The notes under the pieces: generated by a model
Seen by the model: the letters and a program-made list of their open reading frames with translations, nothing else
Told to the model about the DNA's origin: nothing
Database searches by the model: none
Virus record (IMG/VR): IMGVR_UViG_3300021961_000633
Span: 1 to 23,909 of that record
DNA from: a virus
Reading direction: 5' to 3' (one strand)
DNA: 23,909 nucleotides
Translations under genes and position numbers: made by a program
Shown: piece by piece, positions 10,976 through 23,909 of the stretch
How the letters are laid out: every line of letters starts with the position of its first letter
Numbering within the stretch: the first letter of the stretch is position 1

Positions 10976-11473
10976 ATGTTAAGTATTTTATCAGGTATAT
11001 TAGGTTTTGCTACTTCAGGCTTACCCAGTGTTTTAGGTTTCTTTCAGCAAAAGGGTGACCAAAAACATGAAAGAGAAATGGCTAAACTACAAACAGAACG
11101 TGAATTAGAATTAGCTAAAGCAGGCTTTATATCACAAGAAAAGATAGAAGCTATTAAGCTAGACCAAATAGAAGTTCAAACATACGCACAAGAACGTGAA
11201 GCATTATACGACCACGATAAGAAGTTAGTAGAAAATGCAAGCCCTACAGTTAAGAATTGGAACGCTATGGTTAGACCTGTAGTAGCCTTTATCTTTGTAG
11301 GTGAGTTAGTGCTTATCAACCTTATCTCATTAGCATGGGCTATGTGGTCAGGTGTAGACTTTGTTGTAGCATCTCAAGAAGTATTTGGTTCTGAAGAAAT
11401 GGCTATTACTGCATCTATTATTGGTTTCTATTTCGGTTCTCGTACATGGGAAAAGAAACGTGAAAGTATCTAA
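10976..11473 (+). CDS. Holin of the three-TM type
   Basis: 165 aa, SD AAAGGAG at 10964-10970. The N-terminal hydrophobic segment (~residues 1-23) is followed by a long charged helix (25-90), a second membrane segment (~98-124, RPVVAFIFVGELVLINLI) and a third (~143-154, ITASIIGFYFG), ending SRTWEKKRESI. This layout and the NWNAMVRP / GFYFGSRTWEK signatures match the 3TM holin family found next to endolysins and in gene-transfer agents. It permeabilises the inner membrane to trigger lysis. The lysozyme start overlaps its 3' end. Confidence 0.8.
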   Translation: MLSILSGILGFATSGLPSVLGFFQQKGDQKHEREMAKLQTERELELAKAGFISQEKIEAIKLDQIEVQTYAQEREALYDHDKKLVENASPTVKNWNAMVRPVVAFIFVGELVLINLISLAWAMWSGVDFVVASQEVFGSEEMAITASIIGFYFGSRTWEKKRESI

Positions 11474-11909
11474 AGAGGCTATCAAGTTAATCCGACATCA
11501 TGAAGGTGTTCGTAATAAGCCTTACAAGTGTCCTGCTGGTTTATGGACTGTCGGTGTGGGTCATCTTATTGGAGATGGCAAGTCTCTTCCAGAAGCGTGG
11601 AATAAAACATTTACAAACGAGGAAATAGATGGAATTCTTAAACACGACCTCAATCGTTTCGAGTTGGGAGTACGCAAGATGCTACCTAACGTGCCTCTTC
11701 GACAACACGAATTCGACAGCATTGTTTCTTTTTGCTTCAATCTGGGTCTTGGATGCTTTCAGCGTTCAACCATCCGTCAAGCGTTGCTTCGTGGCGATAA
11801 AGAAGCGGCTATGGAATCGCTAGTTAAATATTGTAGAGCTGGTGGTAAAGTCCTAAAAGGCTTACAAAACAGAAGATTGGATGAACGCAGACTATTTCTT
11901 GGTATATAA
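11460..11909 (+). CDS. GH24 (T4-type) lysozyme, endolysin
   Basis: 149 aa from GTG at 11460, inside the holin end. Residue E15 in HHEG, C24 and T30 in LWTVGVGH have exactly the E-8-x-5-T spacing of the GH24 catalytic triad (E11/D20/T26 in T4), with Cys in the Asp place, a known natural variant. NLGLGCF and a C-terminal RRLDERRLFL end fit the family. It cleaves peptidoglycan glycan strands. The frame is open further upstream to a TTG at 11385, which would add a hydrophobic LLLHLLLVSISVLV segment like a signal-arrest-release anchor. No clear SD decides between the starts. Confidence 0.85.
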   Translation: MKVSKEAIKLIRHHEGVRNKPYKCPAGLWTVGVGHLIGDGKSLPEAWNKTFTNEEIDGILKHDLNRFELGVRKMLPNVPLRQHEFDSIVSFCFNLGLGCFQRSTIRQALLRGDKEAAMESLVKYCRAGGKVLKGLQNRRLDERRLFLGI

Positions 11910-15170: not shown

Positions 15171-15559
15171 TAATAAAATACCATCCTTCCTATGTGGACT
15201 ACTTTCTTTTTATTCCAAATAAATCTCATATCTATACTATCATCATGAAAATAAAGACTATTTGCAACTGGGTTAGCATACTTCTTAAAAACTAATGTGT
15301 CAAGTACCAGTAATTGAGTTTCTAAAAACATTTTTTGATCTGGTTTAGCTTGCTTACCATTTACATAGTTTTCTACTCCTATGAACTGCCCACGACTATA
15401 CACAACCTCACAAGCATCTTTGCCAAACCTTTTAGACCTTACTCTATTTGCAATCACATGAATAACCCCTAACTTTTCCTCTAGTGATTGCGTATTGACT
15501 TCTGTATAAACTGCTGTAGCTATACAATGAACGTCATGCTCTGTCAGTTGCATGTCCAT
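15170..15559 (-). CDS. SleB-type cell wall hydrolase (Hydrolase_2)
   Basis: 129 aa. TEHDVHCIATAVYTEVNTQS, then GVIHVIANRVRSKRFGKDAC and EVVYSRGQFIGV, match the SleB/CwlJ catalytic core: Glu in the YxE segment, NRV, and the VVYxxxQF end. A late histidine region (LYFHDDSID) also fits the fold. Such enzymes cleave peptidoglycan. It lies in the leftward early operon, away from the lysis genes, and has no export signal. It may serve lysis, remodelling, or an unrelated job. TAATG-coupled to the 109-aa gene. Confidence 0.75.
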   Translation of the reverse strand: MDMQLTEHDVHCIATAVYTEVNTQSLEEKLGVIHVIANRVRSKRFGKDACEVVYSRGQFIGVENYVNGKQAKPDQKMFLETQLLVLDTLVFKKYANPVANSLYFHDDSIDMRFIWNKKKVVHIGRMVFY

Positions 15560-15888
15560 TATGGTTTGTAAACATTATACACAAGTGGATGAATAACATC
15601 TGCACCTATAATATCTATTATCTTTTTTCTAATAGAATCTTTATGCACGTTTACTACAAAACAACATGAATCTAATAATTCGCTATTAGTAAACAACCAT
15701 TTAATAGCGTCTATTTTGTTTTCAAAATTAATCTTATGATGATACTTCATATTTTTAGTACCTGATTTATTAGGTGCGTGTCTATATAAAGCATCTTCTA
15801 CTGCTTGCGTTAGTATACATGTCAGCAATTTACCCTCTGGGGTATGTGCTAACACACTATTGTCATCAAAATCTATAATCTCTTCCAT
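15559..15888 (-). CDS. Hypothetical 109-aa protein
   Basis: 109 aa, SD GGAG before the ATG (complement of 15893-15896). The N-terminus is acidic; a central basic segment (RHAPNKSGTKNMKYHHK) precedes DAIKWLFTNSELLDSCCFVV and a helical end. No family is recognised. It is the first leftward gene after the pqqA gap, so it either needs its own promoter or is reached by read-through from the SSB-like gene. Confidence 0.55.
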   Translation of the reverse strand: MEEIIDFDDNSVLAHTPEGKLLTCILTQAVEDALYRHAPNKSGTKNMKYHHKINFENKIDAIKWLFTNSELLDSCCFVVNVHKDSIRKKIIDIIGADVIHPLVYNVYKP

Positions 15889-16020
15889 AATGTCTCCGTA
15901 TTTTCATTAGGGTAATATAAATATTTCTTACTTGCTTTTGTATCGCAAAAACAGCATAATTTTATATACAAACTACTTTGTCTTGCATGTATTACATACA
16001 AAGGTGTTTGTGTAGCAAAA

Positions 16021-21898: not shown

Positions 21899-22246
21899 AT
21901 GGAAGCTAAAGTTAGAGAATATAACGTTAAAGGTCGTTTAGTTCATATAGAAAAAATGCGTAATTTAATTTTAGATGCGTTAGGTGATAAGTCTTTAACT
22001 ATTGCAGAGTTATCTGAAGAAATGGGTATGGAACACAGAAAGATTCAATACATTGTATTAAACATGAAAAATTTAGGTATGTTAAATTCAACAGAACGTG
22101 AACAACAAGGACAAAAGAAAATATACAGATACTTTAAACCTAAAGTTAATTTATTACAAAACATATTTCACCCTATGCCAGACTTTAGCGACAGGATCAA
22201 AGGCATTTATATTCACACTGAAGAGGAAGCTAATGCACATAGATAG
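21899..22246 (+). CDS. Winged-helix DNA-binding protein
   Basis: 115 aa, SD AAGGA. Residues ~17-75 form a winged helix: KMRNLILDALGDKSLTIAEL, SEEMGMEHRKIQYIVLNMKN, then a wing with KKIYRYF. The C-terminus is acidic. It may regulate late or early genes; no target is evident. Overlaps the Q-like gene by 14 nt. Confidence 0.65.
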   Translation: MEAKVREYNVKGRLVHIEKMRNLILDALGDKSLTIAELSEEMGMEHRKIQYIVLNMKNLGMLNSTEREQQGQKKIYRYFKPKVNLLQNIFHPMPDFSDRIKGIYIHTEEEANAHR

Positions 22247-22559
22247 GCTTAAACAGATTTTAGATGATTGGGCTAGATGGATGCACGCACCTAGCACTAA
22301 ATTAGGTTATCCAAGCAAGTCATTGGGCATGATTAGTGGTGGCGAGTCTACTAGCGATGCGTTTGAAGACATGGTGTCAGAGATGGATATAACCAATGTC
22401 AGAACCATTGATGCAATTATAAGCAGTTTGCCCAAACATCAGAAAGATGCAGTATACGCTAGATACTTAAAGACATTTAAATACGATGACTATGAGTATC
22501 AATTAGGGCTTGCCTTTGACAACATGCTATCTATGGCTTCTAGGCGTATAGTCGCTTGA
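22233..22559 (+). CDS. Q-like late antitermination protein
   Basis: 108 aa from the ATG at 22233, SD AGAGGAAG. WARWMHAPSTKLGYPSKS, then a sigma-like helical half with IDAIISSLPKHQKDAVYARY and an aromatic-basic end, match small phage antitermination Q / RinA-like proteins. The strongest support is the place: a consensus promoter overlaps its last codons and an intrinsic terminator follows closely, as with lambda Q, pR' and tR'. Confidence 0.6.
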   Translation: MHIDRLKQILDDWARWMHAPSTKLGYPSKSLGMISGGESTSDAFEDMVSEMDITNVRTIDAIISSLPKHQKDAVYARYLKTFKYDDYEYQLGLAFDNMLSMASRRIVA

Positions 22560-22584
22560 CACAAGTATTTAGTTATGGTATAAT
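22556..22584 (+). promoter_or_regulatory. Consensus sigma70 promoter, candidate late promoter
   Basis: TTGACA (22556-22561), 17-bp spacer, TATAAT (22579-22584): a full match to both boxes with ideal spacing. The -35 overlaps the TGA of the Q-like gene. Start expected near 22591. Confidence 0.85.
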
Positions 22585-22590
22585 CACGCT

Positions 22591-22658
22591 ATTGGATAAG
22601 TCTCGCCCATACTCTCCGTAAGTCTCCTATTCCCCTGCTCTCACAGGGGATTTTTTTT
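22591..22658 (+). ncRNA. Predicted short leader RNA between promoter and terminator
   Basis: If transcription starts near 22591 and ends at the T-run, the RNA is about 68 nt. It contains two copies of TAAGTCTC (22597-22604 and 22619-22626), 22 bp apart, followed by the terminator hairpin. In lambda the matching RNA is the 6S transcript that Q extends. Predicted from sequence only. Confidence 0.5.
22631..22658 (+). terminator. Rho-independent terminator (tR'-like)
   Basis: T-CCCCTG (22631-22637), loop CTCTCA, CAGGGG-A (22644-22650), then eight T residues (22651-22658). It lies between the consensus promoter and the DUF6496 gene. Confidence 0.9.
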
Positions 22659-22668
22659 GAGGTAAATA

Positions 22669-22845
22669 ATGAAAAAACCTACTACCAAAAAAGGTAAATT
22701 AGCCAAAGTAGCCAAAGTTATGGGTGAATTTAAGCAAGGTAAGCTTCATTCAGGTAAAAGCGGTAATATTGTCAAAAGCACAAAACAAAGTTTAGCGATC
22801 GCTTTATCAGAGGCGGGCATGTCAAAACCTAAAAAACGTAAATAA
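22669..22845 (+). CDS. DUF6496 small basic protein
   Basis: 58 aa. KVMGEFKQGKLHSGKSG and SLAIALSEAGMSKPKKRK are the hallmark of the DUF6496 family, small lysine-rich proteins often found near phage late genes. DNA binding is likely from charge, not shown. It is the first gene after the terminator and so would need Q-type read-through. Its 3' end overlaps the convergent 42-aa gene by 24 nt. Confidence 0.75.
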   Translation: MKKPTTKKGKLAKVAKVMGEFKQGKLHSGKSGNIVKSTKQSLAIALSEAGMSKPKKRK

Positions 22846-22950
22846 TCGTTTCAGGGTAAACTCAATTACTTTAAACAGGATTGTCAATAATCCTAAAATG
22901 ACAATTCCTATTAAAAAATCTATAATTAGATTTTCTATTGCTTTTTCCAT
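22822..22950 (-). CDS. 42-aa membrane microprotein
   Basis: ATG at 22948-22950 with AAGGGC upstream; TGA at 22822-22824. Acidic N-terminus, a strong membrane segment (IIDFLIGIVILGLLTILF) and a basic aromatic tail (TLKRLFTFFRF). Orientation should be N-out/C-in or reverse by charge; function unknown. Last gene of the right-hand leftward cluster. Confidence 0.5.
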   Translation of the reverse strand: MEKAIENLIIDFLIGIVILGLLTILFKVIEFTLKRLFTFFRF

Positions 22951-22951
22951 G

Positions 22952-23122
22952 TTATGCCCTTTTAAGTTGTTTTTGAATAAATTTTGTAGCATCTTTTTTA
23001 GTAGGCATAAATAGATAGCTTTTAAGGCTTCTATTATACTTGATTAACTCATTGACCCATATAGATAGGTCTTTATTAGAAAAACGCTTTATGGTGCGTT
23101 CCTGTGTGTTTAAGACGTACAT
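22952..23122 (-). CDS. Hypothetical 56-aa basic protein
   Basis: 56 aa from the ATG at 23120-23122, SD AGGAG; a longer frame to 23257 overlaps the upstream gene and lacks an SD. YVLNTQERTIKRFSNKDLSI, then WVNELIKYN, and a Lys-rich C-terminus. It is separated by one base from the 42-aa gene. No family recognised. Confidence 0.55.
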   Translation of the reverse strand: MYVLNTQERTIKRFSNKDLSIWVNELIKYNRSLKSYLFMPTKKDATKFIQKQLKRA

Positions 23123-23123
23123 T

Positions 23124-23333
23124 TTAGTCTCCTTGATAGTCAATAGCGTTTTTAACGGCATACTCAATAAGATTATAGAGTTCCTCGCCGTATTCAGTAT
23201 TGCGAGTGCCGTCTTTAATATCAGGGTCATGCTCAATACATTTTTTAGCAATTCCAAAATGGTCTACAATGTCAAAGTAAACCTCTTGGGTAATATCACA
23301 TACTTGATCTAGTTCTAAAATGTTTATAGTCAT
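23124..23333 (-). CDS. Hypothetical 69-aa acidic protein
   Basis: 69 aa, SD GGAGG. Acidic helices (ILELDQVCDITQEVYFDIVD; EYGEELYNLIEYAVKNAIDY). It overlaps the upstream gene by 4 nt (ATGA). Unrecognised; it could mimic nucleic acid by charge, which is speculation. Confidence 0.55.
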   Translation of the reverse strand: MTINILELDQVCDITQEVYFDIVDHFGIAKKCIEHDPDIKDGTRNTEYGEELYNLIEYAVKNAIDYQGD

Positions 23334-23554
23334 TTTGAAGCCTCCTTATGAAATGCAATAAAAGATAAAGCTAAATTTTCAATATGTCCTAGTAAGTCAT
23401 CGGCTTCACAATCTTCAAATGGTGACCATATAGAGACATCATCGGGAATTACATTGTCACATAAAGCATCATAAAACTGATTATGAGTGTTATCTCCTAA
23501 ATCAGATGTAAAGAAGTCTATTGCATGATTAGTAGCTAATTCGCAAGTATTCAT
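23330..23554 (-). CDS. Hypothetical 74-aa acidic protein
   Basis: 74 aa. Parts such as NHAIDFFTSDLGDNTHNQFY and EDCEADDLLGHIENLALSF resemble its downstream neighbour in acidity and helix content. Coupled by ATGA to that neighbour and by overlap to the 58-aa gene. No family recognised. Confidence 0.55.
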   Translation of the reverse strand: MNTCELATNHAIDFFTSDLGDNTHNQFYDALCDNVIPDDVSIWSPFEDCEADDLLGHIENLALSFIAFHKEASK

Positions 23555-23730
23555 TATGTTATCTCCATATTTGATATTTCAGTAGTAATTTCGGATAGTC
23601 TATAACGCATATCTTCTAAATACGAATTTATGGTTAAGTATCCGCTAGGTGTAATGCCTCTATTGACATCTTCTAAATTAAGATCAATAGCGTGTAGAGC
23701 CTCTGTAATATAGTCTAGTTCTATTTGCAT
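23554..23730 (-). CDS. Hypothetical 58-aa protein
   Basis: 58 aa from the ATG at 23728-23730, SD AAGGAG (complement of 23737-23742); the longer frame to 23841 lacks an SD and would overlap the upstream gene. Helical, acidic (IELDYITEALHAIDLNLEDV and EDMRYRLSEITTEISNM). Unrecognised. Confidence 0.55.
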   Translation of the reverse strand: MQIELDYITEALHAIDLNLEDVNRGITPSGYLTINSYLEDMRYRLSEITTEISNMEIT

Positions 23731-23740
23731 GTTATTCTCC

Positions 23741-23909
23741 TTAATTAAAGCATTTTTTAATGCGTTTTTGTAATAACTTACTATTGTTAATAATATTGAG
23801 TGCGATCGAATCAGTAATAAAGCATTGATTCTCATTGTCAAACTTAACGCCTTGCTTTATAAATTGATTATGTAATTGTTTCATTAAATGTGGGCTGTTA
23901 ATGCACCGC
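23741..23909 (-). CDS. Hypothetical protein, 5' end possibly outside the window
   Basis: The minus-strand frame is open from the right edge to TAA at 23741-23743, at least 56 residues. An internal ATG at 23882-23884 (KQLHNQFIKQGVKFDN follows) has no clear SD, so the start may lie outside. Basic, Asn/Lys-rich end (NNSKLLQKRIKKCFN). No family recognised. Confidence 0.45.
   Translation of the reverse strand, partial: RCINSPHLMKQLHNQFIKQGVKFDNENQCFITDSIALNIINNSKLLQKRIKKCFN
23814..23841 (-). promoter_or_regulatory. Weak candidate promoter for the right-hand leftward cluster
   Basis: Minus strand: TTGACA (23841-23836), 16-bp spacer, TATTAC (23819-23814), four of six -10 matches. It lies inside the partial gene, so it would only serve the 58-aa gene and those after it. 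Low certainty. Confidence 0.3.

What the first reader, a model, noticed from the sequence alone, without database searches (positions are those of the whole stretch)
22556..22668. Promoter, 68-nt RNA and terminator right after a Q-like gene
A full consensus promoter is followed about 45 nt later by a strong intrinsic terminator, leaving only a short RNA. In lambda this is the Q-controlled late switch. The RNA here carries two TAAGTCTC repeats one 22-bp step apart, possible Q or RNA polymerase contact sites. It predicts late genes are read through to the right, even against the leftward cluster.
Basis: partly seen in the sequence, partly recalled or inferred. Interest (0 to 1): 0.6.

Follow-up and report, generated by a model that had tools for sequence, protein, structure and literature searches.

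The report
Phage late-gene switch beside Q gene
Right after a Q-like gene this environmental phage carries a perfect promoter that would make only a 68-letter RNA before a stop signal, the kind of switch lambda uses to hold back its late genes, but here the conserved control sequence sits at the start of the RNA rather than inside the promoter.

Summary
In detail: TTGACA-17-TATAAT (12/12) at 22556-22584, fused to the Q-like gene's stop codon, an inferred 68-nt RNA (22591-22658), and a GC stem plus U8. The block recurs directly downstream of the Q-like gene in 80 of 82 loci examined; one exception has it 732 nt further on, the other contig ends too soon. A DNA scan for -10 plus leader found 68 stretches, 67 fused to a visible Q end; the 68th is cut by its contig end. 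Best reading: a Q-type P-R'/t-R' late switch. The protein's best structural match is phage 21 Q (modest score). Terminase runs the same way in 23 of 23 records with both genes; in 12 of 12 close genomes a leftward cluster lies between, with t-R' the only rightward intrinsic terminator found. The two TAAGTCTC repeats are not the conserved feature (exact pair in 3 of 82). The whole leader +1..+30 is (12.5% pairwise difference, against 43% at Q fourfold sites and 46% in the -35/-10 spacer). Known Q-type proteins bind in that spacer; here it drifts like neutral sites. New variant of a known kind; the loading mechanism is inferred.

The parts
22233..22559 (+). Q-like gene (ATG 22233; TGA stop 22557-22559 lies inside the -35 box)
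   Evidence: sequence; homologues annotated antitermination Q / antitermination-like; best structural match phage 21 Q, VIA-align Z 6.0
22556..22561 (+). -35 box TTGACA, overlaps the Q stop codon
22562..22578 (+). -35/-10 spacer, conserved only at the extended -10 end
22579..22584 (+). -10 box TATAAT
22591..22620 (+). conserved leader block +1..+30 (start site inferred); candidate Q-loading and pause element
   Evidence: mean pairwise difference 0.125 against 0.425 at Q fourfold sites
22593..22609 (+). inverted repeat TGG..CCA (3 pairs here, more in most relatives)
22608..22613 (+). candidate -10-like hexamer CATACT (+18..+23); A at its position 2 and T at 6 invariant in 32 of 32 distinct cores
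   Evidence: function inferred
22619..22626 (+). second TAAGTCTC copy, not conserved
22631..22658 (+). intrinsic terminator (t-R'-like): stem 22631-22650 and U8
22669..22845 (+). first gene beyond the terminator, small basic protein, DUF6496
   Evidence: Pfam PF20106 E 1e-8
22822..23909 (-). leftward gene cluster that read-through RNA would cross antisense (runs off the contig)
   Evidence: ORFs; same layout in 12 of 12 relatives

Best explanation
A Q-type late switch. RNA polymerase starts at a consensus promoter built onto the end of the Q-like gene and, without Q, stops at the intrinsic terminator after about 68 nt. When the rightward early operon has made enough Q-like protein (a small protein with a phage-21-Q-like fold: a sigma-region-4-like DNA-binding part and a flexible N-terminal segment that would be the nozzle), it loads onto polymerase held up in the conserved +1..+30 leader; the polymerase then ignores this terminator and runs rightward through the DUF6496 gene, antisense through the leftward cluster, into terminase and the virion and lysis genes. 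Shown: promoter, leader, terminator, their conservation, their linkage to the Q gene, the gene order. Inferred: start site, pausing in the leader, Q loading there, read-through.
For: Exact promoter fused to the Q stop in 80 of 82 loci, 32 distinct cores. Pattern scan of the viral contigs: 68 stretches, all 68 with TTGACA 16-18 bp upstream, 67 preceded by the Q C-terminus, the 68th cut 29 bases upstream. Terminator hairpin kept in 43 of 44 distinct leader-to-U-run sequences although letters and distance change (RNA 60-82 nt; L017 weak). Leader under strong constraint. Same plan in phages whose Q is 56-63% identical (promoter, leader, terminator right after Q) and in EBPR podovirus 1 (Q 38.6%), where terminase follows at once. 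Element kept 732 and 747 nt downstream of Q in L080 and L297 behind an inserted gene. Terminase in the same direction in 23 of 23 records holding both; t-R' the only rightward intrinsic terminator found between Q and terminase in 12 of 12, and no other rightward promoter of 11/12 or better in 10 of 12. 21Q is the top VIA-align row.
Against: No transcript or read-through data. Q membership by sequence is weak: the window protein matches no Q family; 4 of 37 relatives reach Phage_antitermQ at E<=1 (best 0.0088) and 2 of 37 PHROG 79 (best 0.012). Foldseek gives no match at E<=0.001 and Z 6.0 is within the range of common helical arrangements; the model has pLDDT 73 and the other four models 43-55. 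Venkman-like phages with a 50-53% identical Q have no such element next to Q, and Venkman's late genes run leftward. 11 further loci show no element within 1.4 kb of Q or before the contig end. Weaker promoter-like sites precede terminase (9-10 of 12, and one 12/12 with a 15-bp spacer in L065), so a separate late promoter is not excluded.
Confidence: 0.78

Rival explanations
1. The short RNA is itself the product: a trans-acting small RNA like StxS of Shiga toxin phages, and the leader is conserved because it pairs with messenger RNAs.
For: StxS is made from a P-R'/t-R' unit and regulates stx1B and rpoS (PMC7873438, passages). The conserved UCUCCGUA is fully complementary to UACGGAGA in front of a leftward gene (window 15562-15888), in a 5' region kept across proteins only about 40% identical. 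The best duplex is matched by only 2-6 of 60 shuffled leaders in 4 of 5 genomes.
Against: In the fifth genome (L098) 26 of 60 shuffles do as well, and mean pairing is not special in any (10-31 of 60). The complement is lost in the L098 and L136/L137 clades although the leader is kept. C/U-rich leaders pair with any Shine-Dalgarno sequence.
Confidence: 0.12
2. Promoter and terminator form an ordinary attenuator or insulator for the DUF6496 gene; the Q-like protein is a DNA-binding regulator acting elsewhere and the late genes have their own promoter.
For: A small gene follows directly; weak promoter-like sites precede terminase; Venkman-like phages have Q without the element.
Against: Fusion of the element to Q; +1..+30 conservation is more than an attenuator terminator needs; 21Q-like fold; no conserved strong rightward promoter near terminase.
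Confidence: 0.1

Closest known systems
Phage 21 Q with its late promoter and terminator (21Q family)
   Same: Strong promoter followed by an intrinsic terminator, served by a small protein with a sigma-region-4-like fold and a flexible N-terminal segment (PMC6606751, parts 1 and 2 of 6 read)
   Different: In 21 the binding element is two TGAGCA repeats between -35 and -10 (PMC6606751); here that spacer is not conserved and the leader is. No significant sequence match to a solved Q.
Lambda Q and 82 Q switches
   Same: Order cro, replication genes, ninB, Q, promoter, terminator, late genes (lambda order recalled)
   Different: Different sequence families (PMC9371919, Discussion); lambda's element lies in the spacer; late genes here lie beyond an opposed cluster
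AlpA (Pseudomonas) and GafZ (Caulobacter gene transfer agent)
   Same: Antiterminators loading at their target promoters ahead of terminators; GafZ's putative site is an inverted repeat (PMC11150451, PMC7969949, passages)
   Different: Both sites lie between -35 and -10; here the inverted repeat lies at about +3..+19
StxS small RNA of Shiga toxin phages
   Same: Short RNA from a late promoter/terminator unit
   Different: Target support here is weak

Membership tests
Q-type late antitermination switch | Strong promoter followed by an intrinsic terminator directly downstream of the Q gene | tested here: met
Q-type late antitermination switch | Late genes downstream in the same direction | tested here: met
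   23 of 23 records holding both genes, of 30 searched; the window itself ends before terminase
Q-type late antitermination switch | Protein-dependent terminator read-through | not testable with these tools
   needs transcription assays
Q-type late antitermination switch | Promoter-proximal pause at a -10-like element in the transcribed region | tested here: inconclusive
   A and T of a hexamer at +18..+23 invariant in 32 of 32 group-1 cores, but not recognisable in group 3 or EBPR
Characterised lambda Q / 21 Q / AlpA / GafZ promoters | Protein-binding element between -35 and -10 | tested here: not met
   spacer differs 45.7% pairwise, like fourfold sites (42.5%); only the extended -10 is kept
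21Q protein fold | N-terminal helix and nozzle segment plus sigma-R4-like helix-turn-helix | tested here: inconclusive
   top VIA-align row 6jnx_P, Z 6.0, 83 residues, rmsd 3.9; model pLDDT 73
Pfam Phage_antitermQ / PHROG 79 | Profile match of curated strength | tested here: not met
   no match for the window protein; weak in 4 and 2 of 37 relatives

The most novel reading that the evidence does not exclude
The Q-utilisation site of this phage group has moved out of the promoter into the first 30 transcribed positions: an inverted repeat, kept by paired changes across groups, is read either as DNA or as a hairpin of the nascent RNA, so that a Q-type protein loads on polymerase that has already left the promoter and carries it antisense through an early gene cluster.
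Probability: 0.35. Interest if true: 0.7.

Novelty: new variant of a known kind. Interest (0 to 1): 0.45.

Why it matters
It gives a large, unstudied group of environmental phages a defined late switch, and a natural case where the other parts of a Q promoter are perfect while the expected binding site in the spacer is missing and the leader is conserved instead: a direct test of where a Q-type protein must sit to load. Antitermination across an opposed cluster would also make antisense RNA to those genes.

Tried and rejected
TAAGTCTC pair as the site: exact pair in 3 of 82 elements (WIN, L023, L024); a scan for the pair in viral contigs gave 17 stretches, of which, by contig name, 2 are in contigs of the Q list. 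Covariation of the inverted repeat: supported on the combined alignment A4 (53 rows; 0 of 500 shuffles reach the number of double changes, 1 of 500 the covariation score), not on group 3 alone in the MAFFT alignment A5 (22 rows; 362 of 500 shuffles reach the score), where by my reading 9 rows carry the stem in a shifted register; a register-free swap of leader halves gives 6 of 2000 (group 3) and 62 of 2000 (group 1) swaps as good, without correction for relatedness. In the window the stem is only 3 pairs, -0.6 kcal/mol for +1..+26, so an RNA hairpin is doubtful there. Venkman: a promoter-plus-terminator search on both strands gave no convincing element. Rfam: no match. Solved structures by sequence: no relevant match. 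Bacterial genomes: 36 pattern matches, none a relative, so no prophage or host was found. EBPR-Q query: 2 near copies only. Papers: searches listed no description of this element; that covers only this library.

Full report
What is there. The window is a 23,909-base linear virus record. At 22556-22584 lies TTGACA, 17 bases, TATAAT, with TG before the -10: the full consensus, found once, 0.03 expected. The Q-like gene's TGA stop lies inside the -35 box. With the start site put 7 nt after the -10 (22591, inferred), the RNA to the end of the U-run is 68 nt. The terminator has a 7-pair stem with 5 G-C pairs and eight T. The two TAAGTCTC copies are exact and 22 bp apart.

Relatives. The best 80 of 130 viral-contig relatives of the Q-like protein, the window and MW202481 make 82 loci, many nearly identical; 80 have the exact promoter consensus (spacer 17 in 41, 18 in 39) fused to the Q stop, giving 32 distinct -10-to-+31 cores (one locus, L009, too short for the core). 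Of the two others, L080 has the element 732 nt further on behind an inserted gene and L081 ends 109 nt after Q. Scanning the viral contigs for the -10 plus leader pattern gave 68 stretches; all have TTGACA at the right distance, 67 are preceded by the Q C-terminus and one (L245) is cut 29 bases upstream. In this scan the element was not seen away from Q; the scan pattern excludes the L054-type and displaced versions.

Constraint. Among 32 representatives the mean pairwise difference is 0.125 in +1..+30, 0.457 in the spacer, 0.473 in +31..+40 and 0.425 at fourfold sites of the Q gene. The leader is strongly held; the spacer drifts except for T at -17 (32 of 32) and the TG of the extended -10 (31 of 32 each). 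Invariant leader positions are T2 T3 G4 G5 A9 C14 G15 C17 A19 T23 T25 C26 G28. The terminator is kept as a hairpin with U-run in 43 of 44 distinct sequences while letters and distance change (RNA 60-82 nt); L017 is weak; L009 was too short to judge.

Other groups. A second large group (254 relatives, best 80 kept; sampled Q proteins 56-63% identical to the window's) has Q, a TTGAAC/TATAAT-type promoter, a leader with an inverted repeat (GGACA/TGTCC, GGCA/TGCC, GGGCA/TGCCC) and a terminator with a conserved loop. EBPR podovirus 1 (Q 38.6%) has Q, TTGACA-17-CAGAAT, GGGC/GCCC, a terminator and then terminase. In the script, 14 of 86 entries (duplicates of some contigs included) gave no adjacent hit: L080 and L297 have the element further on, L307 has its own version that the search rule missed (seen), 11 show none within 1.4 kb or before the contig end. 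Venkman-like phages (sampled Q 50-53% identical) keep Q but have no such element beside it, and Venkman's late genes run leftward: a result against a universal pairing.

Inverted repeat. The best-stem score of 38 distinct leaders averages 6.97; shuffles 5.11, highest of 200 means 5.87. Paired changes are supported on the combined alignment, not on group 3 alone as aligned, and supported without a fixed register. In the window the repeat is only TGG/CCA.

Protein. PHROGs and Pfam do not name the window protein; weak Q-family hits occur in 2 and 4 of 37 relatives, sigma region 4 in 31 of 37. AlphaFold gives five helices, pLDDT 73, low confidence at 21-38, a stretch that is nevertheless highly conserved (GYPSKS..GGEST). 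VIA-align ranks phage 21 Q first (Z 6.0, 83 residues over the whole model), the next rows being sigma region 4; Foldseek is not significant. 21Q itself is described as sigma-R4-like with a segment that forms a ring in the RNA exit channel (PMC6606751).

Gene order. Terminase was found in 23 of 30 records searched and, taking orientation from the locus tables, runs in the same direction as Q in all 23; in G021 (L272) it sits at the other contig end, which fits only if that genome is circular. In 12 close genomes (11 contigs and MW202481) terminase starts 4.0-6.4 kb after Q, leftward ORFs make up 2.1-3.4 kb between, the only rightward terminator found by the scan is the one after Q, and a rightward promoter of 11/12 or more occurs in 2 of 12 (L020, L077), inside called ORFs. 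In 11 loci of the other groups the leftward part is 0.3-0.9 kb. Looser scans show scattered 9-10/12 sites, and one 12/12 with a 15-bp spacer in L065, in the gap before terminase. Rho-dependent termination was not examined.

Interpretation. The parts, their linkage to Q and the gene order fit a P-R'/t-R' switch. In lambda, 21, AlpA and GafZ the protein's DNA element lies between -35 and -10 (PMC6606751, PMC7969949, PMC11150451). Here that stretch is free to vary, so the loading element is most simply placed in the leader; pausing there is inferred. Two pause candidates exist: GATA-type hexamers at about +5..+11 and the hexamer at +18..+23; neither holds in all groups. The small-RNA rival has a precedent in StxS and one suggestive 8-nt complement, but the complement is lost in two clades and the overall pairing is not special.

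Noticed in passing
window about 15889-15923 (-), before ORF 15562-15888: A 5' region ACCCTAATGAAAATACGGAGACATTATG is kept in front of proteins only about 40% identical; its UACGGAGA is complementary to the leader's UCUCCGUA.
   Followed up: partly
gap before terminase, e.g. L011 (about Q end +3304..+3461) and L098: Repeated ATTGTAA units about 11 bp apart in the divergent gap, possibly an origin or packaging site.
   Followed up: no
L099 (phage Venkman), intergenic gaps: Many copies of the palindrome GTTTAAAC.
   Followed up: no
L251-L324 terminator loops: The terminator loop TGCACTCTCTCCGTG is almost unchanged across group 3, more than a terminator needs.
   Followed up: no
L080, L297 after Q: An inserted gene between Q and its promoter, starting MLKLLHGDC..DPPY, methyltransferase-like by that motif (recalled).
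   Followed up: partly
window 15173-15559 (-) and 11385-11909 (+): Two different endolysin-type genes, one in the leftward operon and one among the late genes.
   Followed up: no
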